A stretch of DNA of 64,000 bases, from assembly GCA_027475525.1 (NCBI GenBank), contig JAMWFC010000037.1, forward strand, positions 811,419 through 875,418, read 5' to 3'. Every line of letters begins with the position of its first letter. Position 1 is the stretch's first letter. Shown piece after piece: positions 19,203 through 63,172 of the stretch. The notes under the pieces are model-generated. The model searched no databases and had not been told where the DNA came from. It was given only the letters and a program-made list of their open reading frames with translations. The stretch comes from Macrolepiota albuminosa (Eukaryota; Basidiomycota; Agaricomycetes; Agaricales; Agaricaceae). The translations under genes were made by a program, and so were the position numbers.

Positions 19203-21623
19203 TCACTTCCCCAAGTTATTGCGAATGATATTGTGCAAGGTCATTCCGTCGTCCTATAGAGGTACTTTAGTATCACCACAACTAAACTACGGATTACGAA
19301 CCTGATCAAGGGACCAGGTGAAACACCCAGCCATTCCACTGTTCTTCACAAATGTAGCTTTACTCGCAAGCGACCAGGTATCTAGTGGAATAGTGGAAGA
19401 CCTAAACCTAAAGCCGTAAGATAAGGAACAAAGCTTACCGTCATATGCCACGACTGTGGTTTGAGAAGTGTTAAACAAAAACTGTCAATTCCTGTCAATG
19501 ATTCTAAAAGACTATGAAAGACAGTCGACGACGGACCGGTGTGTCGCTGCAGTCATCCCATGCTGAGCAGGAGATGGTCAGTCAAAAAAATCATGAAATT
19601 GATAGATGTACCCATAGTAAAGCCTCCTCCTTGTCCATAATTACCATCAGACAGTTTCACCAGCGCACCTGATGATACGATAGCATTGAAAGGGATCTGT
19701 TGACCCCACCATCCCGTTAGGTCGGCATCTGCAGCAGCCGTTCTAACCTCCTTGAGACGCGCGTGAGAACCGTTAAGGAAGTGCATGCCATTGTTTCTCT
19801 TCCCGTCGGATGCTTCGTTATTCTGCTGGAGAAGCAGCATGTCTGGAGAAGGGAGGAAGCTTCCCGTTAACGATGTTTTACTGCTCTTCGAGACGTAGCC
19901 ATAGACGGGAAGTCCCAACAAGAGCTGGCAAAAATAATATGATCAGTGGCCTATTTCAGGCATTACTTCGACACAGGCACCTTCGAAGCAGGGCAACCGG
20001 CAGCTGTCCATTGACTGAATGCGGCGTGAGCACTTGCCTGAGGTTGCGTTGATGTTCCGCATAGATTTCCTTCATAGTTCGTTAGTCCCTAAAATAGCGT
20101 GATGCGAGAATAATATACCAAGTGGCGCATTTGGTCCTGGGGTATTTGAAGCACCCCAAACATCATAGTTCCTGATCATAGTCAGTACTAGCCAGACATA
20201 TTCATAATGTTATATGACATAATGTTAATATATGTCAACTGCGCCGCATATGCAGAAACATTCGTAAGGGGACTTCCGTTTGCACCAAGCCATGGTAGAT
20301 GGGAGACAGCTGCAGAAATAATCTTTGATGATCCTGGGGTATTTTCATTTACACATCGGGGCCTATTACAACTACAGTGGCGAGGGCACTCACCTACAAC
20401 CGCTCGCAAAGTAGTGATGAAAGTCAAAAAGTTTGCAGCATCTGCAGATGAATAAGGCTGCCCAGCGCCTGGAGAGTTAGGGTATTCCTTTGAGCGACAA
20501 TATCGTCAACAGTCTCCGAGATGATGGGGAAACCCTCACCCAATCCAGATCAATTCCTAGAGTTTTTTGAACAAGTCTAGTTAGCAATAATGTGCCATTA
20601 TTGTCCCTAAAAGTCACTCACCATCTAGTCCATTAGAGTTAATGACGCTCTGGATAGCATTGATAAATATTGCGCGATTTTCAGACGTGGAAACTGCAGC
20701 GCTGTAGTATTCACAGCCTCCCCATCCACCTGTGATCGAGCTAGTAAACTAAACTGTTGTCCAGAGATCTCAAACCATTTCACTCACCTACTGAAAGTAC
20801 GACTTTAGTACCATAACCACTACTATGTGCGGCTGTCGCAAGACGTTGGAGGATGGTCTGGCTCCAACTGTCCAATGCTATTCCGTATGACGAACTGGGA
20901 GTGGCAAAGGCTGTAAACAATCGCTCGATCAATTTCAGCACTCAAGGAAAATTGGGGTTCAGCATACCGAAATATAGGATGTCGAACTTGGAAAAATCAA
21001 GGCTCTCAGGAGGGTAGTTTCCTGCAGACCAATAAGGATAGTACGACGCTACAATGGATGTTGCAGCTGATTTTCTGTCCTCTGATTCCTAAAAGTTCAC
21101 GTCCTTGAATACCGCATTATTTGGCAGAGTCGAAAGACATACATCCTCGACATGAAATTTAGGTATCGTGGGACGCTCGGAAGCAACAAGAAAATGCAAA
21201 AGCATGGACCTATCTTTGTAGTCCGGTGATTTTAAAAGGTCCTCAAGGTATTGCGAGAGACCCCGTTTGCGTTCACTGATGAGTCTGTCGTCCACCCATG
21301 CTGACGGGATTAAAGTTGTGGAAAGAGAACGCTTCGGTGGAAGAGTATATGGATCCTTCAAGAGCTCTATAGCAGAAATCTCTGCCATCAGGATTGGAGT
21401 ATCTTGGTTCATAAATCAAGTGACCTCACCGTGGAGAACGACAAACTACATTGAGGATGTTAAGTTCAGGTGTTCATCAACCGTCCAGCAGCGCACTTAC
21501 GTCTGAGTAACGCCTGTACACAACGCTTTGCGCTGCGTTAAGGGTGACATTGACTACATAGAGAATATGAGGACGTGGAGACGACGCAGTCGTGTGGTCC
21601 TTGATTGTTACAAGGGGTGTCAT
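19203..21623 (-). CDS. PX-domain/GH18 chitinase fusion, paralogue 1
   Basis: The ATG at 21623 opens a PX domain at once, without a signal peptide: PRPHILYVVNVTL, RRYSDF, LLKDPYTLPPKR and SERKRGLSQYLEDLLKSP. These hold the Arg, Lys and Arg used by PX domains for phosphoinositides. After FLVASER an intron leads to the GH18 domain: ASYYPYWSAGNYPP, FSKFDILYFG, the catalytic DGIDLDWEYPNSPGAG (split by introns at about 20555 and 20488), SHLPWLGANGSPL, the beta-6 motif NYDVWGASNTPGP and the beta-8 segment GMAGCFTWSLDQ. The end is LHNIIRNNLGK with stop at 19205-19203. The catalytic DxxDxDxE is intact. Known GH18 chitinases enter the secretory route, whereas PX proteins act on the cytosolic face of endosomes or vacuoles. 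The fusion is therefore unexpected. It shares architecture and intron pattern with the gene at 23142. Confidence 0.85.
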
Positions 21624-23141: not shown

Positions 23142-25324
23142 CTAGTCTTTACCCAAATTCGTACGAACGACGTTCTGCAAAGCTAGCCCATCGTCCTGAT
23201 GGAACACCATAAGAGATATGGGCTGATGAGCATATGCTCAGAAATTACCTGATCTAAGGACCATGTAAAGCAACCACCCATACCAGCGTTTTTGGCAAAC
23301 TTAGTCTTTGAGGCAATACTCCAAGTATCGTCATACGTGACCACAGTTGTTCGGGCGATGTTGTACACGAACTTGTCAAAGAAGAAATTAGAAGTAAGTA
23401 TATTGAACGTAGCAGGAACGTCACCGGTGTGTCGCTACAATCATCCCAGGCTAAGGACAAGAAACTCTCTGGGTTAGAACTACGTTTCACCAGAACGACG
23501 ATTTACCTTGTGTATAACCGTTTGCTGCCATGTAAGTGCCGTCACGTCGTTTCCGAAGCACACCAGAACGAACCAGCTGATTGAAGGAAATCTGTTGACC
23601 CCACATCGCACTAAGGTCACCAGGAGCAGCTGAAATTCTCTTGGGAGGGCCACGTGCAGACTCAACCGGATTTGCATTGAGGTCACGCGTGCTGCTGCCT
23701 GATAGCTTTGTAGCGGTGCTCTTTGAGACGTAGCCATATAAAGCAAGTCCAAGAAGTAGTTTTGATGCCGGAAAGCCAGCCTTCGTCCATTGCTTAAAGG
23801 CAGACATCGCAGTAGCTTGTGGGCTCTTTGAAGTTTTGCAGAGGTCTCCTGCTTTTCAGTTAGCCATTGCTAGTTGCAGTATATAGATTGTACCGAGGGG
23901 TGCGTTGGGTCCGGGGTTAGAAGATGCACCATTAACATCATAGTTCCTACGTTAAAATAGGTCAGTTGTGAAGTAATGTCCTCAAAGAAGACAGTCTACA
24001 TGATGTTCACGTATGTCAAGAGTGCCGCAAACTTGGTAACATCAGTCAACGGCTTGCTATCAGATCCAAGCCATGGGAGGTGAGGTACCGCCGCAGAGAT
24101 GATTTTTGCCGGTCCTGAATGAATTTTAAATCAGCAAGTGCCACATTCCATGCATTGTGACAACCTAGAGATACTCGAAGGAGCTCCAAAAATGACAAAA
24201 AATTGGCGGAATCGGTCGGACGGTGGGTATTGCCTGCACCTAAGGAGTTGGGATATTCCTGCGGGGAATATTTATTTACATTAGGTAAGTTGTTCATGCG
24301 ACATAACTCGACCGTACCCAGTCGATATCGATTCCTAAAGGAGAATCAACTTTGAACCAGAAACCATGTTTACAGCATTACAAATACTAACCATCAAGTC
24401 CGAATGAGTTCACAGTACTTACTAAATTATTGTTCAACTTCGCCCGATTAGCCGTACTATTCACTGCATCGCTGAACCAGTGGCTGCCTTCCCATCCGCC
24501 TGCAATCGATGAGTCAAGGCGAGTCAATGAAGAATGGAAAAATGTCAAATTTACCAATTGACAATACGATTTTTGTGCCCTTGCCACTACGGCGTGCACT
24601 GGAAACTAAATTCCTAAGAATGTCCTGACTACCGTTATCCCAATCCAAAGTCGCCGAGGCATTTGGTACAGCAAAAGCTGGGCAAGTTTCAGAGTTGAGG
24701 AAGTTTAGAGATTTACGTAGATACGTCACACATACCGAAGAATAAAATATCGAATTTAGCGAAATTGATTCTATCTGGAGGGTTGTTACTCGCCGACCAT
24801 GTCGGGTAGTACGCGGCCGCGACAGTCGCTGCTTGAGGTTGTGGGCCAAGTGATTGGGTGTAAGCAAGCATGTTGCGATCCATCATGGCAGGCGCGTCTC
24901 TAGCGATGACCGAGAGCTCTCCCACATCAAATGAAGATGAAAGAAGGAATTGGATGAATGCATGGCTATCTTGATACTGAGGGTTCATCCTGAGCTGGTT
25001 CAGATATTCTGCAAGCCCGGCCTTGCGCTCTGCCATGAGCCCGTCGTCGATCCAGGCAGACGGGAACATGGCGTTGAAAAACATGCGCTTGGGCGGCATA
25101 ACAAAATCATCACCTAGAATTTCATGAAGAATGAGAAACTTTATTGCCATCAGTCAATGAGTCTGGTGTCGAGCGAGGCGATTGAAATTTACCTGTGAAT
25201 ATCTCCGCGAAACTTCATACTCTTGACCATTTCCCAAGACCGTCTTGACGAGGTATAGGACGTGAGGATGAGGGGAAGAGGCAGTAGTGTGTTGGAGAAT
25301 AGAGATACTCTGTATGATGGCCAT
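23142..25324 (-). CDS. PX-domain/GH18 chitinase fusion, paralogue 2
   Basis: The start at 25324 matches the paralogue by alignment (TTASSPHPHVLYLVKTVL against TTASSPRPHILYVV). The PX core is RRYSQF (intron between Q and F), LHEILGDDFVMPPKR and AERKAGLAEYLNQLRMNP. The same uninterrupted exon (about 25124-24740) continues into the GH18 start AAAYYPTWSASNNPP and FAKFDILFFG, so the fusion is visible directly in one reading frame. Then come LSIG, GGWEGSHWFSDAVNST, the catalytic DGIDIDWEYPNS (introns near 24330 and 24260), VPHLPWLGSDS-like and NYDVNGASSNPGPNAPLG segments, LLLGLALYGYVSKS, MWGQQISFNQLV and GMGGCFTWSLDQ. The end is VVRTNLGKD with stop at 23144-23142. Catalytic and lipid-binding residues are conserved. 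No signal peptide is seen. Confidence 0.88.
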
Positions 25325-25948: not shown

Positions 25949-28900
25949 CTAAAGCAGCTTGCTTGATGCTGCGGGTGCGATCCGGCTGTGTATAAGTTTA
26001 ATAAAGTATAGTGGGAGTGCGCTGATCGTGACAAGCACAGCAAGCTTCCAAGCAAATACCAATGACACCACGAAGGATGTATCTGTCGAACCCCGACCTA
26101 TCATCAGAAGATGCGAAAAGAGCATGGCCATTCCACAAACACGCACCAAAATACTCTGGCAAGAAGGCGATGCTGACGACATACAGAATAAAGGTGACGA
26201 TCTCCGAAACTACCATATATAGATGCCTGAACAAAGGGTGAGACGCTGAAAGGACAAGATAAACAGATCGAGGCACCATGTTGTGATTTCTAACGCGACC
26301 ATTATAAGCTCATTCAAAATCAGAGCTGTAAAGGAGATCGACACAATGTGCAAGAACTCGTTTTCAAACAGCACTAGGGACATGATCATGATTGCTGCGC
26401 CTATGCATATGCATCAAACCAATTCAGTGAAACACAGGTCTCCATTCCAGCAGCCACATACCCTGATAAAGACTGATCATCAACCACTGAAAGAACGTTT
26501 TGTAAGATAATGCGCGGCCCTAAAAACAATCAGATTGAGTAAGCGGAGCTCGTCAAACTTGCAGACATGTCCACGAAAGGATCGTCCCTTACCTTGGTTA
26601 ATTCCTTATACAGCTCCGGATACAACAAGGCAAGGTCTTCATTGACATCCCGATCAAGAACCAGAGAAAAGACCGGAGCCATTGTGTATACAGTGGCGTA
26701 CCCAACCATCAAAAATCCCTGATATAACGCAATCGGGGCAAAATAAAAGATGGCCGAGAACACAGCCTGCATAATGGAGATGATGAGACCACGATGAATG
26801 ACGAACTGTGCCAGCTTGGCAGAACGCCTGTAAGAGTTACGCCCATGCCAGAGCAGTAGTTTAGTGAGGAAACTGAATTGGGTCACAGAGAAGTCTGCAG
26901 CGAGAGACGCTTGCTTTCCTTCTTTCCCGACGATACCGACACCTGACATCAAGTAAGACATGTTACACTACATCAAGAGTGGAAAAATACGCACCGACAT
27001 CTGCAGCCTGTATCATGCTGACGTCGTTACCGCCATCTCCAATGCAGCAAACCCGCTTCTTCGTGTGTTTACGAATAAGTCGCGCAACATCTGCTTTTTG
27101 AGTCGGCGAGCAGCGACATGCAACAACAGCCGATAATTTGGTCGTTATCTCGATGAATTCGTTCTTGAATAGGTTGAGGCAGAGCTATGATCAAAATTCA
27201 GCAAGCCTGCAGGCACAAACCAACTTGAAAAAATATACTGACCTGTAGAGACTCTCCATCGATGACCAAGCAACAATCGAGTTTCGACTGCAGGAATTCC
27301 AACTGATCCCGGGCTTGTTCTGACGTCTTCACTACAAAGTTTGCTTTTTCAGCAAAAGGCACTTGGAAGCAAAACAAGAAGACGACAAACATTTAGCAAT
27401 CTCATGGATATACTGATTCCTCGCCACCAGCTTCGTCGAAATCGCGATACACCTCGCCGTCTCGATCTTATCCCCAGTCAACATCCAGATCTTGATCCCA
27501 GCGTTCCTCAACAACTCAAGTGTAGACTTGACATCATCCTGCAGCTTATCTTCCACGCCCGTCAAGCCAAGTAATTCCAGATCATGTTCCAGATATTCCG
27601 CAACGACCGCGGCCATCGCCTCGTTCCTGCCCTCAAGCTTCACACTCGCCTCGTGGTGCTGCGTCTTAAAGTCCTTGTAAAGCTGAGGCCCAAGGCGCTT
27701 CCGCGCCATAACAAGGGTGCGTAAACCCTCACGTGCCATGTTCCCCGTCTCCTCTTCCAGCCAATCGTTGCGCTGCACTATCTTCGCCATCACGACGTCA
27801 GCGCCCTTCTGCAAGAACGTAATCTCCCCCGTTTGTCGATCCCGTACAACGATACCCATACGTTTTGACTCCGACGTGAATGGAAAAATATCAAGCACGT
27901 CGAACGAGATTATTGCCCCTGCGGGCGTGCGTAGATCAATCCTAGTGCGATCACGGAAGACAAGTGTAAGCCCGATAGATTGGGTCCAGGTGACGATAGC
28001 GACTTCGTCCGGGGACGAAGCTTGATAGGTTACTGTACCATCGTCATTACTTACCGGGGTAACCTAAAAGGAGTTGCAATACCAGTAACACCCACGAAAA
28101 CCGGCTGCTTACGTTGTGGCAGAGTGCTAGGCTTAGTACGACATCACGAACACGGGATGACATATCTCTCCGCCCTCGTGTCGCGAGTTGCGCTCCGGTA
28201 GACAAGGATGCTTTCCTCATGTGCGCTATGTATCACAATGTCAAAGGTCATTCCAGAATTCAGATAACGTCTAATCTAGATCACGTACCATGTTCTCCTG
28301 CTCCAAATGCAACTTCCAACTGATGCGCGACCTCATCCATCGAGTCATAACCATATGACATTGTCCCCATATGCAGTTTCTTCATTTCCATTTCTAATCT
28401 GGAATCAGCTTCATCTCTCTCTACCAGATGATGAAGAAACCTTACCGTTTTGGGTCAAAGTCCCTGTCTTGTCACTCAGCAAGTACTCAATCCGACCAAG
28501 CTCCTCCGGAAGGGTGCTTGTGCGCACAATCGTGTTGGGTATCTCGCTGTCGTTCATTATTTGCTGTGCGTAAACTGTCTTACCCATATCGAGGTTGACC
28601 CGCAGACTGAATCCGAGTAAACGTCAAACCCCAAAACCAATAGTCAAACTACACACCTTATGGGAATGATGGACGAAAAGAGTATAAGAAACCGGAATAC
28701 ATAGATGTACCACAGTCCCCTAAAACCATTGAGAGCTACGAGCACGATTGACAGGGCGAATGTGACAGCGCAAAGGATCTGTAACAAGTGGTCAATCAGC
28801 GAAACCCAAAAGAAGGAATCCAAGGTAACTTTACCTTTGCAAGTCTGTTAATTTCCAAATCTAACAATCCAACTTTAGTTTCAGGATGGCTCGTATTCAT

Positions 28901-44783: not shown

Positions 44784-47595
44784 TTTTTTTGAATCTGCCA
44801 GCTAGGATCTATTGCCTAGCATTCGACGTCAGTCGCTGAGTTTGTTGACAGAACTCTATCAGCTTCTCGAGCTTCTTGCACAGCCACACCGTGTAAATTT
44901 CAAACAGGGGATCGATGAGTAATCTCATACCTGCAGCTCCCACTGACGGTGGGCAGAATGCCCACGATGTACGGGGAGATCCAGCAGACATTCAGAATGC
45001 GTCAGCGCCCAATAGGGGTCAGTCAAGACCCAAAGCTCGAGACCGAGGTTGGAGCACCAACCTGTCCGGGAATGAAAGTGAGGCCTGGAGAGCTGAGAGC
45101 TCACAACATGATGGCCAGCCATGGCCACAGGACAGGATGCCAGGGGGATTAACTCCCCCAGTTATGCAGCTGCCAGGAGGACTGCGACGGTCTAGCCGGT
45201 TAGCCTCCAAAGAGCCCCCTGATGAAGGTTGGCAGTCAACAGGCGCCCAGGGCACCTCAGTAGACACTGAGTCGTTGGCACGAACTGGGGGACCTATTCC
45301 TCTGAGCCGGAGTAGCAGGACCAGATGAACCACAGTGGGCTCAATGCCCACCAGGATAGCGGAAGCCTGCATAGAGGAGGTACCGGAGGAGGCTGCAAAC
45401 CCTGAGGTAGCCCGTGCAGAAAATTGTTTTCTGTGCACACCAGCTATGGAGAAAGCCCCAGAAGGTGCAGAGCTCCTGGAGGAGGTGGTTGAGTTGTCCA
45501 GCAACGATGACACTGGAGTAGAGGAGCAGTGGTTGAAAACTGCATATACCATGCACTTGCGGGTGTTCTGGGATTTACACCCAGAGGTGATGAAATACAC
45601 CACCCAAGCACGAATTGAGCGCTATGCTTCAGTGCATATAGTAGCACTTAGGCAACAAGGGCACAAAGTGCCCAATGTATTCAGTACTAAATATACTGAT
45701 TTGATGGTAAGAGTGCTCACAATGGAACTGCAGATGTATTTGCAGCAGAAGGCCGCAAGGCAATCTGGGTGTCAACCCCCTAGAGCCACATGTCCAAGGA
45801 ATGCTCGGCACGTTGTAATCAAGACGTTGGAGTTGAGCTAGTAGAAGCACTAGCATGGGCGCAGGAAGTGCCCGAGGTAAAGCCATTGAGTACCTTTTAT
45901 ACTTCAGCAGGACAAGGGTGGCATGAGGAGCCCCCACATTTGCATAACCGAGACCCTAGGACAGAAATGTCAGGCCTGGATGGACACACTAGTACTGCGT
46001 TCAAGGTGGAGAGCAAGGCATCTGTGATGCCATGCATGCCAATGGCGGAAACATTGAGCAACAGAGTCACGTATCAGCGTATGCGCAATGGCAACCTCAG
46101 AGCTAAGGGACAGTCCTTTATCAACAATCAGGGCATCATATTTGAGGGCACGAAGCCCATTGACGAGATGCGTTGTCAATTCATCACGCAGGGCCAGGAG
46201 AATCAAGCTTCTCCAGAACCTGGGTGGCACAACGATCATGATCAAGGAGACTTTCTCGATTGAGATGGTGCCACCAGACATGATGCCCCTGTTAGTGGCC
46301 AGGATGATTGCCCTAGGCCGACTCTCCGAGATGAGGGCAATTATGCCCACAGTCAAGGGGGCTCGGGATGCCCGCTGCAGAGTGGATGAGGGAAGTCACT
46401 TCTCCAAGCCGCGGACTTAGCAACTAGATCTCTGGGCCAGTGGGAGGCCATTCAGATGCATCGTGAGGCCATGCACAATTGCCTGCATTGAGTAGTTGAT
46501 GATGCTCTAGGAGTAACCTTGCAGTTACCCAATGGGGTGAAGCTGCATAAAGCGGACAGTAGGCACATTTGCACCTACACAGGCACGTCCAAGTTCAGTG
46601 ACTTGGAGGACTGGGCAATGGATGTATGCACCCACCTTGCAATGTGCTTATATGGCAGTGACTGTATGGAATGAGAACAAATCTTTGTTCTACCCGAATT
46701 CTTGGCCGGAGAGGCCATGGGGTGGTTTCGATGTGCAGTATTGCATGTCAACCAGGTCCAGTATGAGTGGACGTTCAAAGGAGTCCTCACAGGACTGTAT
46801 GATCAATTTGTGCACCCCTCAATGCTACAGAATGCAAGGCAAGACTTCCAGTCCACCAGATACACCAAGAAGTTGGGAGTACAAGGGTTCTATGATACCC
46901 TTAACGACCATGCCCAGAATATAGCAGTATATCCAGATGGGTATATGATGCTCAAAACATTCTTGGATGGTATTCCAGCAGACATGCGCTGCTATCTGAT
47001 ACGTGAGGACAGACTGTCCCCAGAGGTCAACGATGTGGAAGAGTTTGTGGCATATGCCATTAGGTATGAGCAGTCTCTTAAGACTGCTAACCACTATGAG
47101 CATCATAGTGGCTATAAAGGGGGAAGCAGGCGATTGCCGCTTGCTGGGGCATCCTCACGGGGTCAGCATGTGGGGACCTTCTTGGCCAAGAAGGCCAACA
47201 TGGATCGTGACCACAACACACGGTTTGTGGTACGCAAAACGCCTGCGGCAAATCGAGGGCGACCCTGCCCACAACTGGAGCGGACGCCAGACAGAGAACG
47301 TTCTAAACCAAGGCCAGAGTTCAAGCCAGCCAACCCACCTGGTCAGACAGGGACCTGTTTTGCATGCGGCTAGCCAGGCCACTATGCTACCAACTGCCCC
47401 ACAAAAACGGGAGCCCCAAGAAAGGGGTATACACCCCATGCCCACCTTCGAGCCGCACATACTGCAGCTGCGAGTGGGAGTGATGGAGATGTTTCAGCTG
47501 AATCTGAGGCTGAGCACCCCATGAACGACCAAGAGCCCCCAGAGGAGGCTTTGGGCGCTGAGCCTGAGAGTGTGGTCATGAAGGGGGAGGAGTAC

Positions 47596-48067
47596 CGCCG
47601 GTCCGGGGGGCAAGGGCCTAAGTTATTTTTTATTGATTCTAATAAAGATACATCTTTGACATGTAAAGTAATAGAAAAAACAGGTCTAACTCTCCATTTA
47701 GTTTTTAATTTAGCATTATGCTGTATTTTAATAGAAAAACAACCTTCACCGTCCACAAACCCTGTTAAAAACCAAGGATTTATTTTAGTTTCAGATTTTG
47801 TAGAAAATAATTTTTTATTTAATTGGTTAGAAGGGATTTTGATTTGATAATTTCTTTTGAAACCTATTAGAGTACACCTTAATTTTGGATAAATTGCTCC
47901 AAAATAACTACCATCTACTCGTTGCTCTTTTACAGAAATTCTTTTTGGCTGTGGGCTTTGAATTTCTGACTTAGGTCCGCCTTCCTTACATAAATGTAAG
48001 TGGAGTAGAACCTACTACATACTACAGACATAAGGCCTTTGGCCTTCTCTTTCTACTCAGGCCTTTG
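47596..48067. other. Mitochondrial-DNA-like insertion (probable NUMT)
   Basis: This 472-bp block is AT-rich, unlike the GC-rich gag on both sides. It sits exactly between GAGTAC and GTCACAGTC, which are adjacent in the right copy (near 62034). Its ends carry GC-cluster-like sequence (CGCCGGTCCGGGGGGCAAGG and AAGGCCTTTGGCCTT) typical of fungal mitochondrial genomes. It encodes part of a LAGLIDADG endonuclease on the minus strand. No target-site duplication is visible, which suits capture during double-strand-break repair. Confidence 0.8.
47612..48003 (-). pseudogene. LAGLIDADG homing-endonuclease fragment (mitochondrial type)
   Basis: The minus strand is open for about 130 codons. It contains KEQRVDGSYFGAIYPKLRCT, the LAGLIDADG helix within PWFLTGFVDGEGCFSIKI, and RVRPVFSITLHVKDVSLLES ending near IKNNLG. 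This is the usual order for the N-terminal half of intron-encoded endonucleases in fungal mitochondria. The second half is absent, so this is a fragment without expected function in the nucleus. Confidence 0.82.
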
Positions 48068-56967: not shown

Positions 56968-58732
56968 TTAAGCGCCGGCACGTTTACTTAATTGATGTGG
57001 GCGCTTAATGCCCTTCAACTCCAAATAACGGTCAAGTGCCGCTAGCTTGGAGCAATGGGAGTGTGGCTCCCATGTTGTGTCCCCCAGGGACCATCGTACT
57101 TCAAACTCGAGCGTGTTACGCTCAGTCCACCGGTGCCCAATTATGCACTCGACGAACCATTTGTCATCGTCTCGAGCCCCAAAATCATAGGGGCCCGGGG
57201 TTGCCCTGTTAGGGAACAGCGCATCGTCAGATGCGCTGTATCATCGTCTCGAGCCCCAAAATCATAGGGGCCCGGGGTTGCCCTGTTAGGGAACAGCGCA
57301 TCGTCAGATGCGCTGTAAGGTCACAACAGCGACACATGAAACTTAGGAACGATGCATCGTTCCTGTAATGCCAGAGGCAGCTCCAACACGTAGTTGGAGG
57401 TACTTGGCTCTGCGTCTAGGACGCGGTATGGGCCTACCCATTTCGGGCAGAGTTTACTCACCCGTCCCTTTGGGAGCTTCAGATTACGCGTTGATAGGTA
57501 GACCAACGCTCCTACTGCTATTGGCGGGTCCGCTCGCCTACGGTGATTGGCGTTTTTTGCCTGGAAGACTCGTGCCTCTATGATGGCGTCATGCGCTGCC
57601 GCGATGTTCTCCAGGGCCTGCCTGGCGAACTCGACAACTCCACGGTGAGCCACCATATCAGCACGAACTTCATGCAGCATGGAGGGCAAGTACCCTCCGT
57701 TGAGTTCAAAGGGCGCATACCCTGTGGTATCCGAGATACTCGCGTTAATCGCGAACTCGGTGAGTGGACACCAGTCCACCCAGTCCCGTTGGTCAGGGCG
57801 AACAACTGCCCTCAAAATCTGACCTATACTGCGGTTAGCCCGCTCTGTCTGCCCATCCGTTTGAGGATGGAAGGACGTCGACATGAGGAGTCGCACTCCT
57901 AGCAGTTTGTGGAGTTCTCTCCACCATTGAGACGTGAACTTCGAGTCACGATCGCTCACAATGGTGCTAGGCAGCCCATGCAGCCTAACGATCTTCTCCA
58001 CCATTGAGACGTGAACTTCGAGTCACGATCGCTCACAATGGTGCTAGGCAGCCCATGCAGCCTAACGATCTCCTCAGGTAGATCCACGACAGCTCCTTAG
58101 CCGTCAGCGTAGTTCGCACCGGTATGAGGTGCACCATGCTCGTCATGCGGCATATGACTACCCAGAGGTAATCGAACCCTCTGGACTCGGGAAAGGGACC
58201 TACGAAGTCCATTCCGATTGAGTCCCAGGGTTTCACCGGCACAGGTAGCTGGTGTAGCTTCCCGGGAGGGGATCCAGGGGGCAACTTTGCCCTCTGACAC
58301 GCTGCGCATGACGCGCAAAACTTAGTCACTTCTTGGGCCATACGTGGCCACCAGGGGGCAACTTTGCCCTCTGACACGCTGCGCATGACGCGCAAAACTT
58401 AGTCACTTCTTGGGCCATACGTGGCCACAATACCATCTCCGGATGTAGCCCAGCGTCCAGGCGGCACCAAAGTGCCCCACCAGGGCATGGGCCTGGTCCA
58501 AGACCCGCGTAACAATGGTACGCGTACGGGGGAGGCATACCACTGCCACCCCTTGACGGTTCTCCGTCGTGATGAGTCCACCAGGCTCATGCCTGAACCG
58601 AGGATGGTCGTCAGGATTGGCGATTATCTCGGCAAAGAGAGGATCATCGCCATAGTCCTGCACCACCTCCTGCCGGAAGTCGTCATTGACCAGGCTAGGA
58701 GGCTGGGATGAAGGCAATTCGCCTTCGAGCAT
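56968..58732 (-). CDS. Integrase with C-terminal chromodomain (pol, right copy)
   Basis: The zinc-binding HHCC part is [20 protein letters not shown] with [11 protein letters not shown] (about 58480-58310). The core DDE has [31 protein letters not shown] and [20 protein letters not shown]. The GPY-like segment is [20 protein letters not shown], then VPKFHVSLL. After the 77-bp duplication at 57164 the frame continues into a chromodomain: [36 protein letters not shown] and [13 protein letters not shown], with stop at 56970-56968. The chromodomain marks the element as a chromovirus and probably targets insertion to marked chromatin. Three duplications interrupt the frame as read. Confidence 0.85.
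57164..57317. repeat. 77-bp exact tandem duplication 19
   Basis: Copies begin at 57164 and 57241; between integrase and chromodomain. Confidence 0.95.
57918..58071. repeat. 77-bp exact tandem duplication 20
   Basis: Copies begin at 57918 and 57995; integrase core. Confidence 0.95.
58275..58428. repeat. 77-bp exact tandem duplication 21
   Basis: Copies begin at about 58275 and 58352; integrase zinc region. Confidence 0.95.
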
Positions 58733-58826
58733 CTCCGCAAGTGTAACGGCCGGAAGTCGTCATTGACCAGGCTAGGAGGCTGGGATGAAGGCAATTCGCC
58801 TTCGAGCATCTCCGCAAGTGTAACGG
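58673..58826. repeat. 77-bp exact tandem duplication 22
   Basis: Copies begin at 58673 and 58750; between RNase H and integrase. Confidence 0.95.
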
Positions 58827-61402
58827 TACATCGTGGTGCTCGTGCTCCCTAGTGGACGCTGGGTCCACGGCTTCATGCTCCTTGAGCAACTGGGCGGCTA
58901 CGTCCCGTTCTTCACGCTGCTCTCTGAGGCGAGTGCTTCGCCTCCGTTCATCATCACGCATAGCGCGTACTTCCAGGACATGCTCCCTGAGCTCCTGGTA
59001 TCGGTGGAGAGGTAAATCCTCTCCATCAGGGTCTATGCGGCAGTCTGCCTGCACATACTCATGAGGCTCGTGAGCCTCCCCAACTACATCACTCTCAAAG
59101 TAGCGCGACAAGCAGTCTGCCACTTTGTTGAGTTCACCTTTAACATAGGTGATGTCGAACTGGTATCTCGACATGTAGTCTATCCACCGTCGCTGGCGCG
59201 GCGACAAGTTCACCTGAGTTTTAAAGAACTCAAGGGCCTTGTGGTCCGTTATGATGTGGATGGGGTATCCCATCAGCTTATCCTCCCACTTGAGGAGGGC
59301 CTCGAGTATGGCAAGAGTCTCCAGCTCGTGCACTGCATAGTTTTGCTGGGCCGTCGTGAACTTCTTTGACATGAACCCTGCTGGGCGGCACGTCTGCCAG
59401 CTGCTTCCCTGGCCATACATGGCTCTGACGCCTGTCTTGGACGCGTCGCAAATGAGCCATATTGGCTCGTCCCGTCTAGGGTCGATTGGTCGAATCACTG
59501 GAGTCTTCGTACAGATCCGTTTGACCATCTCGAAGCACCGCTGGTGCAACGGCCTCCAATTGAACGGTGATCCGTTCTGCGTCATGGCCATAAGTGGCCC
59601 AGTATAGGCTGTGACATCGGGCAAGAAGCTCGATATGTAGTTGACAAGGCCAACGAATCGTTGGATGTCATTGTAGTTTCGGGGCATGCGCCACTCCCGA
59701 ATACGATCGAGCTTGTCCTGATCAGGGTGGATACCCCGCTCGTCTATGACATGCCCTAGGCAGTCTATACTCTGAGCGTAGAGCTCACATTTTTTCCACT
59801 TCAAGTACAACTTGTACTTGCGCAGTCGTTCGAATACGACTCTGAGGTGCTGCTCATGCTCCTCCATAGTATCCGAGTAGATGAATATGTCATCTAAGTA
59901 GACGTGCATGAACCATCCTATTACGTCTCGGAAGATAGAGGTCATTAGCCTCTGGAAAGTTGCTGGAGCATTGCAGTCTCCAATCTGCATTATATTGCTC
60001 GTGAATGTACCCATGATCGACGCAAATACGGTCTTGGTACGTCCTTGGTGCGAATGCGCACCTGCTTGTAGGCGTCAGTAAGGTCAATCTTCGAGCGATA
60101 CTTCGCCCGAGCCACGTCTTCCCGGATCACCTCTTGATCTGGTAAAGGAGTTACATCCTTTATGGTATTGTCATTGTGCTGGCCCGAGCCACGTCTTCCC
60201 GGATCACCTCTTGATCTGGTAAAGGAGTTACATCCTTTATGGTATTGTCATTGTGCTGACGTGCATCAAGAGCTGTTCGAAGGGTTCCATCCTTCTTTGG
60301 GATGCACAATAACGGTGCAGCTTGAGCGGTGGTGCATGGGGACCACCATTGAGCATTCAAATAGCGATTAGTCTTATCGCGTAGTTGCTCGGTGCAGCTT
60401 GAGCGGTGGTGCATGGGGACCACCATTGAGCATTCAAATAGCGATTAGTCTTATCGCGTAGTTGCTCTGGAGGGCGCGCGGACAGCGCGGCAAGTGGTAC
60501 TTATACTGCTTGTTCTCGTCTATGAGATTATCTCATGGTTCACCTCCCGCCACGGCGGGAGCTCCTCCTTGGTCCCATTGACCATGTCGGCAAATTCTTC
60601 TTGCCATTGCTGACACAACCGAGGAATATCTTCCTCACGAAGGCTTGTCGCCTTCTGCTTCCCCTTCATACGCACCGGGGGAAGTACTTCCACCGTCTCT
60701 GAGGGTGGCCGAGGCGGCGGTGCATACTGCTCGCACATTGCGAGCACCCGATTGACACTGTCATCAGGTATATGTAGTCTCAGCGGAGCACCCGCTGCCG
60801 CTGTCTTATAAGCCACGAGGCTTCTTCCTTCACGTACAAGCGAGTACGCTATGGATACCTCGTCCGGGGCTGGCTGGCGATACGCTGGTTTGACGGTCAT
60901 CCGTCTCTGGTGCGCATTTTGCGCACACGTGGCTGCCACCAGCTCGTTCCACTCTTGCGGCATTCGGGGGTCGTATGCCCAGTCGTACTCCAGCAGGGGA
61001 GCTGGTCGCTCCCATAGGGACCGTGTGTCCCCCTCTACTGAGGCTTCCACCTCTTGGATGCTGTCTTTCAAGTCTTCCAACTTGACTCGTGAGGATGTAG
61101 GTGGACATACATCCACTGAGTCCTCCCGTTGTCTCGCCTTTCGATGGCGTTTGTCCGGAGGCCTTGCGCCTCGAATCTCAGGAGCGATTATTCGCTCGTT
61201 GCTCCTCTTGTCGCCTTTCGATGGCGTTTGTCCGGAGGCCTTGCGCCTCGAATCTCAGGAGCGATTATTCGCTCGTTGCTCCTCTGGAGGCTTGATACTC
61301 CTCCTCGCTCATCATTACCACGTTGTGGTCTGCGCTCAGTCCAGGCATAGCCTGCACTTCCTCCTCCACATCCTCCACGGCCGGCACTCTGCGCCGGCCA
61401 AG
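58695..61402 (-). CDS. Reverse transcriptase-RNase H part of pol (right copy), interrupted
   Basis: RT motifs are IPKKDGTLRTALDARQHND (about 60290), KIDLTDAYKQVRIRTKDV (about 60090), GDCNAPATFQRLMTSIF and the catalytic YLDDIFIYSD (about 59905-59875). CDASKTGVRAMYGQG opens RNase H, followed by FTTAQQNYAVHELETLAILE, ITDHKALEFF and YVKGELNKVADCLSRY. Upstream is EDIPRLCQQWQEEFADMVNG (60620). The frame is broken by duplications at 58673, 60105, 60314 and 61134. A missing base at about 60030 (AAA read as AA before the TVFAS-equivalent) breaks it again. Catalytic Asp residues are intact. Confidence 0.82.
60105..60258. repeat. 77-bp exact tandem duplication 23
   Basis: Copies begin at 60105 and 60182; reverse transcriptase. 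Confidence 0.95.
60314..60467. repeat. 77-bp exact tandem duplication 24
   Basis: Copies begin at 60314 and 60391; start of reverse transcriptase. Confidence 0.95.
61134..61287. repeat. 77-bp exact tandem duplication 25
   Basis: Copies begin at 61134 and 61211; gag-pol spacer. Confidence 0.95.
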
Positions 61403-63172
61403 TCATGGAGAGTCCTTGCGTTTCTCCATAGTGCGATGACGTCGCAGACGATTATCAGTGTCGTCTGCTGTAGCTCGTTTGGCTGGGATCACTTTCCCAT
61501 TCACTAGTACCTGACATTGGTCAAAGTCTAGTATGACTTTGTTACGCCGCATGAATGGCGTTCCCAGTATCATATCGTAGCAATCAAAGTTCGCTACATC
61601 CATGTATTCCCGGCTACGTGAGCCCGGCATTTGGACATTCACATTTGTCCCATACTGCACCATGGCTCGGCTCCCTATGGTGCCCAGCTGTAACGCCAAT
61701 GGCGTATCCAACTCCTGCACGGATATTCCGTACACATGGGTGAACTGGGGTGTTATGCCCGATGTGGTACTCCCAGAGTCCCATAGGGTCCATGCCTTGT
61801 GGCCGTCTACGTCCACATACGAGACCAGGCACTCCTTGTCTGCTCGTTTCAATGTTGGGTGCTGCAAAGTGCCCTCTGCACGACGAAGGGTCACCTTCTT
61901 CATCCAAACTACGTTATTCCGTTTGGGATCATTTGTGGACGGCCAATCCGTCATTGCCGCTAGGCACTCAGAGTCGCTGTCGCGACTGTAATACTCATTG
62001 TCGTAGACGTCGTCATATACGTCGACTGTGACGTACTCCTCCCCCTCCACGACCACACTCTCAGGCTCGGCGCCCGATGCCTCTTCTGGGGGCTCTTGGT
62101 TGTTTGTGGGGTGCTCCGCCTCAGACTCAGCAGATACGTCTCCATCACTCCCACTCGTGGCTGCAGTATGTGCAGCTCGAAGGTGGGCGCGGGGTGTATA
62201 CCCCTTCCTCGGGGGTTCTGGCTTCGCAGGGCAGTTGGTAGCGTAGTGGCCTGGTTGGCCACATGCAAAACAAGTCCCCGACTGCCCCGGTGGGTTGGCC
62301 GGCTTGAAGTCCGGCCTTGGTTTAGGACGTTCGCCGTCCGGCGCCCGCTCTGGGCATGGGCGGCTCCGCCCTCGGTTCGCAGCAGGGGTTCTGCGTACAA
62401 CAAACCGCGTGTTGCGGTCACGGTCCAAATCGGTCTTTTTGGCCAGGAAGGTCCCCACATGCTGACCCCGTGAGGGTGTCCCACCAGGCGGTAGTCGCCT
62501 GGGTCCCCCTTTGTGTCCACTCCGATGTTCGTAGTGGTTAGCAGTCTTCAGAGACTGCTCATACCGGATGGCATATGCCACAAATTCTTCCACATCGTTG
62601 ACTTCTGGGGACAATCCGTCCTCACGTATCAAATAGCGGCGCATATCCGCTGGAATGCCATCCAAGAACGTTTCGAGCATTGTATACCCGTCCGGGTATA
62701 CTGCCATGTTCTGGGCATGGTCATTAAGGGTATCATAGAACCCTTGTACTCCCAACTTCTCGGTGTACTTGGCGGACTGGAAGTCCCGCCTTGCATCCTG
62801 GAGCGTTGAGGGGTGTACGAATCGATTGTACAGTCCTGTAAGGACTCCTTTAAACGTCCAGTCATATTGGACACGATTGACGTGCAGTACTGCCCGTCGA
62901 AACCAACCCATGGCCTCTCCGGCCAAGAACTCAGGCAGAACAAAGATTCGTTCTCGTTCCATACGGTCACCTCCGTATAAGCACATGGCAAGATGGGTGC
63001 ATACATCCATCGCCCAATCTTCCAGGTCGCTGAACTTGGACGCGCCTGTATAGGCGCGAATGTGCCTACTGTCTGCCTTACGCAGCTTTACTCCGTCTGG
63101 TAACCGTAAGGTTACGCCCAGGGCATCATCAACTACTCGATGCAGGCAATCGTGCATGGCTTCACAATGCAT
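61403..63172 (-). CDS. Gag and aspartic protease (right copy)
   Basis: A 589-codon open frame. The capsid-like region holds FSDLEDWAMDVCTHLAMCLY, FLAGEAMGWFRRAVLHVNRV and GVQGFYDTLNDHAQNMAVYP. The CCHC knuckle is CFACGQPGHYATNC (about 62270-62230). The aspartic protease has the active-site DSG in AWTLWDSGSTTSGITPQF (about 61795-61745) and the later MILGTPFMRRNKVILDF. It ends KRKDSP with a TGA at 61405-61403, after which the same frame stays open. The left copy has TGA at the same codon. Gag continues upstream of 63172 in broken frames to the window end. Confidence 0.85.
   Translation of the reverse strand: MHCEAMHDCLHRVVDDALGVTLRLPDGVKLRKADSRHIRAYTGASKFSDLEDWAMDVCTHLAMCLYGGDRMERERIFVLPEFLAGEAMGWFRRAVLHVNRVQYDWTFKGVLTGLYNRFVHPSTLQDARRDFQSAKYTEKLGVQGFYDTLNDHAQNMAVYPDGYTMLETFLDGIPADMRRYLIREDGLSPEVNDVEEFVAYAIRYEQSLKTANHYEHRSGHKGGPRRLPPGGTPSRGQHVGTFLAKKTDLDRDRNTRFVVRRTPAANRGRSRPCPERAPDGERPKPRPDFKPANPPGQSGTCFACGQPGHYATNCPAKPEPPRKGYTPRAHLRAAHTAATSGSDGDVSAESEAEHPTNNQEPPEEASGAEPESVVVEGEEYVTVDVYDDVYDNEYYSRDSDSECLAAMTDWPSTNDPKRNNVVWMKKVTLRRAEGTLQHPTLKRADKECLVSYVDVDGHKAWTLWDSGSTTSGITPQFTHVYGISVQELDTPLALQLGTIGSRAMVQYGTNVNVQMPGSRSREYMDVANFDCYDMILGTPFMRRNKVILDFDQCQVLVNGKVIPAKRATADDTDNRLRRHRTMEKRKDSP

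What the first reader, a model, noticed from the sequence alone, without database searches (positions are those of the whole stretch)
23142..25324. A PX phosphoinositide-binding domain fused to a GH18 chitinase in one reading frame
One uninterrupted exon (about 25124-24740) encodes the end of a PX domain (PPKR, AERKAGLAEYL) and the first strand of GH18 (AAYYPTWSA, FDILFFG). The upstream exon has RRYSQ joined to F by a clean intron. The catalytic DGIDIDWE, the beta-6 NYD and the terminal Trp are all present. PX domains bind phosphoinositides on the cytosolic face of endosomes, while chitinases normally act outside the cell or in the vacuole lumen. No signal peptide is seen. I know of no described chitinase with this architecture. 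It may be a membrane-recruited enzyme for autophagic or endosomal chitin or glycoprotein turnover, or may be non-conventionally secreted.
Basis: partly seen in the sequence, partly recalled or inferred. Interest (0 to 1): 0.88.

Follow-up and report, generated by a model that had tools for sequence, protein, structure and literature searches.

The report
PX-domain chitinase of mushroom fungi
The window holds two neighbouring intact mushroom genes, each encoding a chitinase fused to a lipid-binding PX domain and lacking an evident export signal; the combination is real, is found in many mushroom-forming fungi, has been mentioned in print before, and what it does in the cell is still unknown.

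Summary
Minus strand 25324-23142 gives one 12-exon gene (529 aa, 11 GT-AG introns) that scores above Pfam's cut-offs for PX (42.7 bits, cut-off 21.6) and GH18 (199.2, cut-off 29.6). One uninterrupted exon spans the PX/GH18 junction.

The architecture is neither unique nor undescribed. All 120 listed relatives (of 1139 hits) carry PX and GH18. PMC8097845 names a PX chitinase in Ganoderma boninense and cites one in Phanerochaete chrysosporium as expressed but chitinolytically inactive.

New here: PI3P-pocket and catalytic residues are conserved across 133 PX-positive proteins. The family has two old types, apparently linked as a pair in 12 of 13 species examined. One type has a near-invariant linker motif. 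Relatives outside the family lack PX, and some begin with a signal-like stretch.

Best reading: a leaderless chitinase recruited by PX to PI3P membranes, probably reaching chitin by an unconventional route. Lipid binding, activity and route are inferred, not shown.

The parts
23142..25324 (-). PX-GH18 gene (type I), 12 exons, 529 aa: 25324-25193, 25138-24736, 24677-24555, 24499-24392, 24334-24318, 24258-24165, 24114-24000, 23946-23894, 23848-23507, 23450-23425, 23371-23249, 23195-23142
   Evidence: spliced model with GT-AG introns and no stop; Pfam
24938..25231 (-). PX domain, residues 32-111 (split by intron 25192-25139); RRYS, PPKR and ERK motifs
   Evidence: Pfam PF00787, 42.7 bits; motif counts; PDB sequence match to CISK-PX and SNX3
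24736..25138 (-). single exon running from the second half of PX through the linker into the first part of GH18
24818..24937 (-). linker between PX and GH18 (residues 112-151), poorly conserved
   Evidence: median identity 0.11 over residues 113-148 in 37 relatives; the matching stretch 121-142 of the P0001 model has pLDDT under 50
23193..24817 (-). GH18 domain, residues 152-513, with DGIDIDWE and NYD
19203..21623 (-). second PX-GH18 gene (type II), 16 exons, 531 aa, 52% identical to the first
   Evidence: spliced model; Pfam PX 44.4 bits and GH18 183.2 bits

Best explanation
A leaderless GH18 chitinase whose N-terminal PX domain stands where some of its PX-less relatives have a signal-like stretch. 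The PX pocket most likely binds phosphatidylinositol 3-phosphate (PI3P) and places the enzyme on the cytosolic face of endosomal, vacuolar or autophagic membranes. As the catalytic residues are kept in almost all members examined, the enzyme probably then reaches chitin in walls, septa or autolysing compartments by an unconventional, membrane-dependent route. Shown here: the gene model, the fusion, the family, the residue conservation, and PX-less relatives outside the family. Inferred from motifs: PI3P binding and catalysis. Speculative: route and substrate. Component estimates: one real protein 0.97; PI3P binding with membrane recruitment 0.75; delivery to chitin rather than a cytosolic substrate 0.5.
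For: Intact gene with one exon across the junction, and the same order in the neighbouring gene. PX in 120 of 120 listed relatives by a local profile and in 118 of 120 by the precomputed Pfam column. In 133 PX-positive proteins (131 database, 2 window): second Arg of RRYS 128, Lys of PPKR 128 plus 3 Arg, Arg of ERK 132, catalytic Glu 132. PX codons differ between the two window genes mostly at third positions (0.45, 0.22, 0.72), as expected under constraint. The PX sequence matches CISK-PX (E 1.9e-7) and, weakly, SNX3 and Sgk3. The GH18 tree splits 50 PX-less rows, 16 of them signal-like by heuristic, from the 70-row block that holds all 51 PX rows. Precedent: Cts1 of Ustilago maydis lacks a signal peptide, binds PI(4,5)P2 and is exported (PMC12167484).
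Against: A PX chitinase of P. chrysosporium is reported as chitinolytically inactive (cited sentence only). Cts1 was not seen on moving early endosomes (passage of PMC7358432), and its reported lipid is PI(4,5)P2, not PI3P. No lipid-binding, activity, localisation or transcript data here. The loop with the PPKR motif is of low confidence in the model (block 61-70 pLDDT 52). Asp 1 of the catalytic motif is Ala in 8 of 133. PX on the cytosolic side and chitin outside are topologically at odds unless an export step exists.
Confidence: 0.5

Rival explanations
1. A truly cytosolic enzyme: PX holds GH18 on the cytosolic face of endosomes or vacuoles, where it cleaves GlcNAc oligomers or free glycans in the cytosol, with no export.
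For: PX domains bind phosphoinositides on the cytosolic leaflet (established knowledge); no signal peptide or transmembrane segment is indicated.
Against: No cytosolic chitin-like substrate is known to me. Part of the PX-less relatives have a signal-like N-terminus, which suggests that this GH18 lineage works on external chitin.
Confidence: 0.25
2. A non-hydrolytic, lectin-like or sensing protein: the GH18 part binds chitin oligomers but hardly cleaves them.
For: The P. chrysosporium PX chitinase is reported as expressed but chitinolytically inactive (PMC8097845; original paper not held). Asp 1 is Ala in 8 of 133.
Against: The catalytic Glu is kept in 132 of 133 and Asp 3 in 131 of 133, including the Phanerochaete sordida protein P0058, whose motif is DGIDIDWE. 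Inactivity in one assay may reflect substrate or folding.
Confidence: 0.18
3. An artefact: two neighbouring genes wrongly joined, with PX and GH18 made separately.
For: No transcript was available to settle it directly.
Against: One uninterrupted exon spans the junction; the neighbouring gene has the same order; all 120 listed relatives carry PX and GH18 in one model (lowest local PX score 64.8 bits).
Confidence: 0.02

Closest known systems
PX-carrying chitinases of Phanerochaete chrysosporium (Karlsson, Stenlid and Lindahl 2016, seen only as cited) and Ganoderma boninense (PMC8097845)
   Same: A chitinase with a PX domain in a mushroom-forming fungus. Relatives from related genera, Phanerochaete sordida P0058 and Ganoderma adspersum P0052, are PX-GH18 (P0058).
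   Different: The window gene belongs to type I. P0058 and P0052 fall in type II. The two published proteins themselves were not compared.
PX-less GH18 relatives of basidiomycetes, such as the smut proteins P0238-P0254
   Same: Same GH18 domain family; the window core matches Testicularia P0159 at 50% identity over 85% of the 289-residue query.
   Different: No Pfam PX; N-termini of many begin with a signal-like stretch.
Cts1 of Ustilago maydis with its helper Jps1
   Same: A GH18 chitinase reported without a signal peptide and with phosphoinositide binding (PMC12167484).
   Different: Reported lipid is PI(4,5)P2 and the tether is a separate protein. Cts1 was not identified in my searches, so neither its kinship nor its N-terminus was compared.
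RmChi1 of Rhizomucor miehei (5xwf, 5yuq)
   Different: The aligned chain range, 77-445, covers GH18 only.
PX domains of CISK/Sgk3 and SNX3
   Same: Sequence match with the RRYS and RK-GL motifs aligned in the two alignments shown.
   Different: There the PX belongs to a kinase or a sorting nexin, not to a glycoside hydrolase.

Membership tests
PX domain (PF00787) | Profile score over Pfam's cut-off | tested here: met
   42.7 bits against 21.6
PX domain (PF00787) | PI3P-pocket residues (Arg and Tyr of RRYS, Lys of PPKR, Arg of the second helix); motif recalled | tested here: met
   present in the window protein and in most of 133 PX-positive proteins
PX domain (PF00787) | Phosphoinositide binding | not testable with these tools
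   needs a liposome or similar assay
GH18 (PF00704) | Profile score over Pfam's cut-off | tested here: met
   199.2 bits against 29.6
GH18 (PF00704) | DxxDxDxE catalytic motif | tested here: met
   DGIDIDWE in the window protein
GH18 (PF00704) | Chitinase activity | not testable with these tools
   one related PX chitinase is reported inactive
PX-GH18 proteins of mushroom-forming fungi | PX and GH18 in that order over the full length | tested here: met
   P0001 71% identical over 100% of the query; PX in 120 of 120 listed relatives by local profile
PX-GH18 proteins of mushroom-forming fungi | GH18 domain groups with the other PX members | tested here: met
   both window genes lie in the 70-row block with all 51 PX rows, SH-aLRT 100 (quick tree, unrooted)
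Cts1-type unconventionally secreted chitinases | Orthology to U. maydis Cts1 | not tested
   Cts1 was not identified among the proteins fetched
Cts1-type unconventionally secreted chitinases | Export without a signal peptide | not testable with these tools
   needs localisation and secretion assays

The most novel reading that the evidence does not exclude
Mushroom-forming fungi evolved a built-in lipid-targeted route for a chitinase. An ancestor exchanged its signal peptide for a PX domain, the enzyme now rides PI3P membranes to septa, vacuoles or autolysing cells, and two ancient types, one with a near-invariant linker motif, divide the work. Some brown-rot polypores have since dropped PX, in one case with a signal-like stretch in its place.
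Probability: 0.35. Interest if true: 0.75.

Novelty: new member of a known kind. Interest (0 to 1): 0.42.

Why it matters
A chitinase with a cytosol-facing lipid-binding domain and no evident export signal is a topological puzzle that, in the papers found by my ten searches, is mentioned only in passing. The family occurs in many mushroom-forming fungi, and its lipid pocket and its active site are both conserved, so the puzzle can be tested in laboratory mushrooms. If the enzyme is exported, it would be a counterpart to the Cts1/Jps1 route of Ustilago with the lipid anchor built into the chitinase itself.

Tried and rejected
Kinship with U. maydis Cts1: considered because Cts1 is leaderless and binds a phosphoinositide. 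The third protein search, from the Testicularia protein P0159, listed smut relatives without Pfam PX. Of the 41 rows P0238-P0278, 24 have a signal-like N-terminus by heuristic (2.0 or more), and not all of these rows bear a name. Cts1 was not identified, so the idea stays untested.

Haplotype comparison for selection: contig C36 carries the same locus, but the three aligned pieces are 99.77, 99.78 and 100% identical with 2 mismatches and 6 gap openings in all, so it says nothing about constraint and may be an assembly duplicate.

Whole-model structure search: the 50 rows shown by Foldseek and the 50 by VIA-align are GH18 matches. They do not test the PX part, and no PX-only model was made.

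A model of the type II protein P0014 was meant to show whether the linker motif is ordered. Blocks 111-120, 121-130 and 131-140 have mean pLDDT 61, 62 and 53 with a short helix at 129-135: no clear answer.

Signal-peptide heuristic: at 1.8 or more it flags 10 PX-positive proteins. For P0018 and P0063 the stretch is the first PX strand in the alignment; the other 8 were not checked one by one. In the 70-row block of the tree the flagged P0136 also looks doubtful. It is a crude stand-in for SignalP.

Cysteine and N-glycosylation-site counts: medians of 5 and 4.5 Cys (types I, II) against 4 in 52 signal-like proteins, and means of 3.6, 5.4 and 3.8 sites: not informative.

Dropped before counts: three rows under 230 aa (P0187, P0199, P0220) from the GH18 tree, which used 120 of 318 sequences. 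The 129-row tree kept PX scores over 60 bits and lengths of 450 or more. The 13 species pairs were picked by hand as equal organism and equal longest-contig length, so linkage is inferred. A further pair, Panaeolus papilionaceus P0116 and P0124, also splits into types II and I but P0124 came and is not counted. All relatives come from the listed top 120 of each search, not from all hits (1139, 3093 and 587).

Literature: 10 of 10 searches used. 'PX domain' with 'GH18' gave 0 papers. 'PX domain', 'chitinase' and 'basidiomycete' gave 2, of which I opened PMC8097845 only.

Full report
What is there. The minus strand from 25324 to 23142 carries a 12-exon gene with 11 short GT-AG introns and a 529-codon open frame. 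Pfam gives PX at residues 32-111 (42.7 bits, cut-off 21.6) and GH18 at 152-513 (199.2 bits, cut-off 29.6). Exon 25138-24736 runs without interruption from the second half of PX through the linker into the first part of the GH18 barrel. The start codon lines up with the starts of most relatives in alignment A1.

A second gene. The sequence downstream holds another PX-GH18 gene on the same strand, 21623-19203, with 16 exons and 531 codons; Pfam gives PX 44.4 bits and GH18 183.2 bits. The two proteins are 52% identical. Their PX codons differ by 0.45, 0.22 and 0.72 at codon positions 1, 2 and 3, close to the GH18 part (0.31, 0.25, 0.61), while the 22 aligned linker codons show no such pattern (0.59, 0.45, 0.55). 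In the window's own genome a six-frame search gave 21 GH18 matches and one for PX gave 15; the two kinds lie together only at this locus and at its near-identical copy on contig C36. Such searches see exons singly and score only the best candidates, so other pairs may be missed.

Relatives. One search found 1139 proteins at E 0.001 or less among 7997 candidates scored and listed 120. The precomputed Pfam column shows both domains in 118 of 120 (not in P0010 and P0082). A local PX profile finds PX in all 120, lowest 64.8 bits; that profile was built from alignment A1, which holds 37 of these proteins and the window protein, so for those 37 it is not independent. The named organisms include Tephrocybe, Lyophyllum, Pleurotus, Armillaria, Trametes, Ganoderma, Gloeophyllum and Auricularia; I place them in Agaricomycetes from memory, and looked up only Tephrocybe (Lyophyllaceae, Agaricales). 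The best-scoring hit is a Tephrocybe protein at 71% identity. Given names are mostly of the kind 'glycoside hydrolase family 18 protein', 'hypothetical protein' or 'Chitinase A1'.

Constraint on both halves. In an alignment of 133 PX-positive proteins (131 database proteins from the three searches and the 2 window proteins), the second Arg of RRYS is present in 128, Lys of PPKR in 128 with Arg in 3 more, Arg of ERK in 132, the catalytic Glu in 132 and Asp 3 in 131; Asp 1 is present in 122, with Ala in 8. Median identity to the window protein over 37 relatives is 0.47 in PX, 0.11 in the linker and 0.65 in both GH18 stretches measured. PX thus changes faster than GH18 and far more slowly than the linker. 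The PX sequence matches the designed CISK-PX 4oxw (E 1.9e-7) and more weakly SNX3 (0.005) and Sgk3 (0.0086); that these bind PI3P is recalled.

Two old types. In a FastTree of 129 PX-positive proteins a branch with support 98 separates 39 rows with the window gene (type I) from 90 rows with its neighbour (type II). From I picked 13 species with two members and equal longest-contig length, hence apparently on one contig. In 12 of 13 one member is type I and one type II; Piloderma has two of type II. In Tricholomella the two locus tags are consecutive. The pair in the window therefore looks like an old arrangement. Type II proteins carry a conserved island in the otherwise variable linker, F-x-x-E-D-A-L-P-S-T-L-S-R-K: in the 53 rows of alignment A3, E, D, P and S are in all 53, T in 50, L in 51, R in 52 and K in 44. 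Over the whole types, E and D are at 0.99 in type II, and type I is mixed at these columns. The window's own type II copy keeps ED, and what follows falls in intron 21142-21089 in my model. I know of no function for the island.

PX and signal peptides. A second search with a 289-residue piece of GH18, which shuts out longer proteins, listed 120 of 3093 hits, and 10 of the 117 newly fetched carry PX. A third, from the smut protein P0159, listed 120 of 587, and 1 of the 79 newly fetched carries PX. In a 120-row GH18 tree (of 318 sequences), 50 PX-less rows, 16 of them signal-like by heuristic and 34 not, are split at SH-aLRT 100 from a 70-row block with all 51 PX rows, 17 rows with neither and 2 flagged signal-like. 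Of the PX-less rows in that block, P0129, P0132, P0139, P0146 and P0156 look like truncated models. A group that I recognise as brown-rot polypores (P0125, P0127, P0128, P0130, P0140, P0141, P0142, P0144) has 7 to 57 residues before GH18 and no PX; P0125 of Rhodonia begins with a signal-like stretch, the others score below the threshold. P0133 of Fomitopsis schrenkii, in the same group, still has PX, so the losses are not uniform. The simplest reading is one gain of PX in a lineage with secreted relatives and later losses; but the tree is unrooted and quick, and needs 10 changes of the PX label, some of them due to truncated models.

What is in print. PMC8097845 (passages and section 7 seen; [quoted passage not shown] That paper is not held, so I rely on the citing sentence. 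A survey of GH18 in 373 fungal genomes has no hit for 'PX domain' or 'phox' in its main text (PMC8042737, passages). PMC12167484 (abstract and start, sections 4 and 10, passages) says that Cts1 of U. maydis lacks a signal peptide, interacts with PI(4,5)P2 and is exported, and that Hebeloma cylindrosporum has a GH18 chitinase without a predicted signal peptide. The phrase 'PX domain' does not occur in its main text; PX is named there for the control protein Yup1 and in general terms. The H. cylindrosporum protein found here, P0018, scores for PX (37.4 bits) and GH18 (190.4 bits); whether it is the protein meant there is an inference. PMC7358432 (passages) reports that neither Cts1 nor Jps1 was seen on moving early endosomes, which speaks against a simple endosomal parallel.

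Mechanism and verdict. The best-supported reading is a leaderless chitinase brought to PI3P membranes by its PX domain. How a cytosol-facing anchor lets the enzyme meet chitin is the open question. Unconventional delivery is favoured by signal-bearing relatives and the Cts1 precedent, a cytosolic role by topology, and a non-hydrolytic role by the reported inactivity. None has been tested for this gene.

Noticed in passing
window 19203-21623, minus strand: Second intact PX-GH18 gene beside the reported one, of the other (type II) kind.
   Followed up: yes
P0014 residues 117-133 and the other 52 rows of alignment A3: Near-invariant linker motif F-x-x-E-D-A-L-P-S-T-L-S-R-K in type II PX-GH18 proteins, absent from type I. 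Its function is unknown to me, and the model of P0014 gives it middling confidence.
   Followed up: partly
window 21089-21142, minus strand: In the window's type II gene the place of that motif falls in a 54-nt intron; reading on from ED gives VCLSTLP before a stop, as if the motif had become intronic. No transcript to check.
   Followed up: no
P0125, P0127, P0128, P0130, P0140, P0141, P0142, P0144: Members of the PX block of the GH18 tree that lack PX, in polypores that I recognise as brown-rot fungi; only P0125 (Rhodonia) begins with a signal-like stretch, while P0133 in the same group keeps PX.
   Followed up: partly
window about 26530-28063, minus strand: Upstream neighbour is a P-type ATPase with the phospholipid-translocating C-terminal domain (PF16212, 107.3 bits) and cation-ATPase/hydrolase matches; it looks like a Neo1-type flippase (recalled). 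Whether the adjacency is conserved was not tested.
   Followed up: partly
window about 57321-63172, minus strand, and 46675-47373, plus strand: Retrotransposon-like pieces: reverse transcriptase and RNase H at 58695-60074 by Pfam; gag-like and integrase-like frames judged by eye.
   Followed up: partly
window 47382-48011, minus strand: Frame with a LAGLIDADG endonuclease match (PF00961, 56.0 bits), possibly a piece of mitochondrial origin.
   Followed up: no
L017 (G000:C36:672000-681900): Near-identical copy of this locus on another contig: three pieces at 99.77, 99.78 and 100% identity; a second haplotype or an assembly duplicate.
   Followed up: partly
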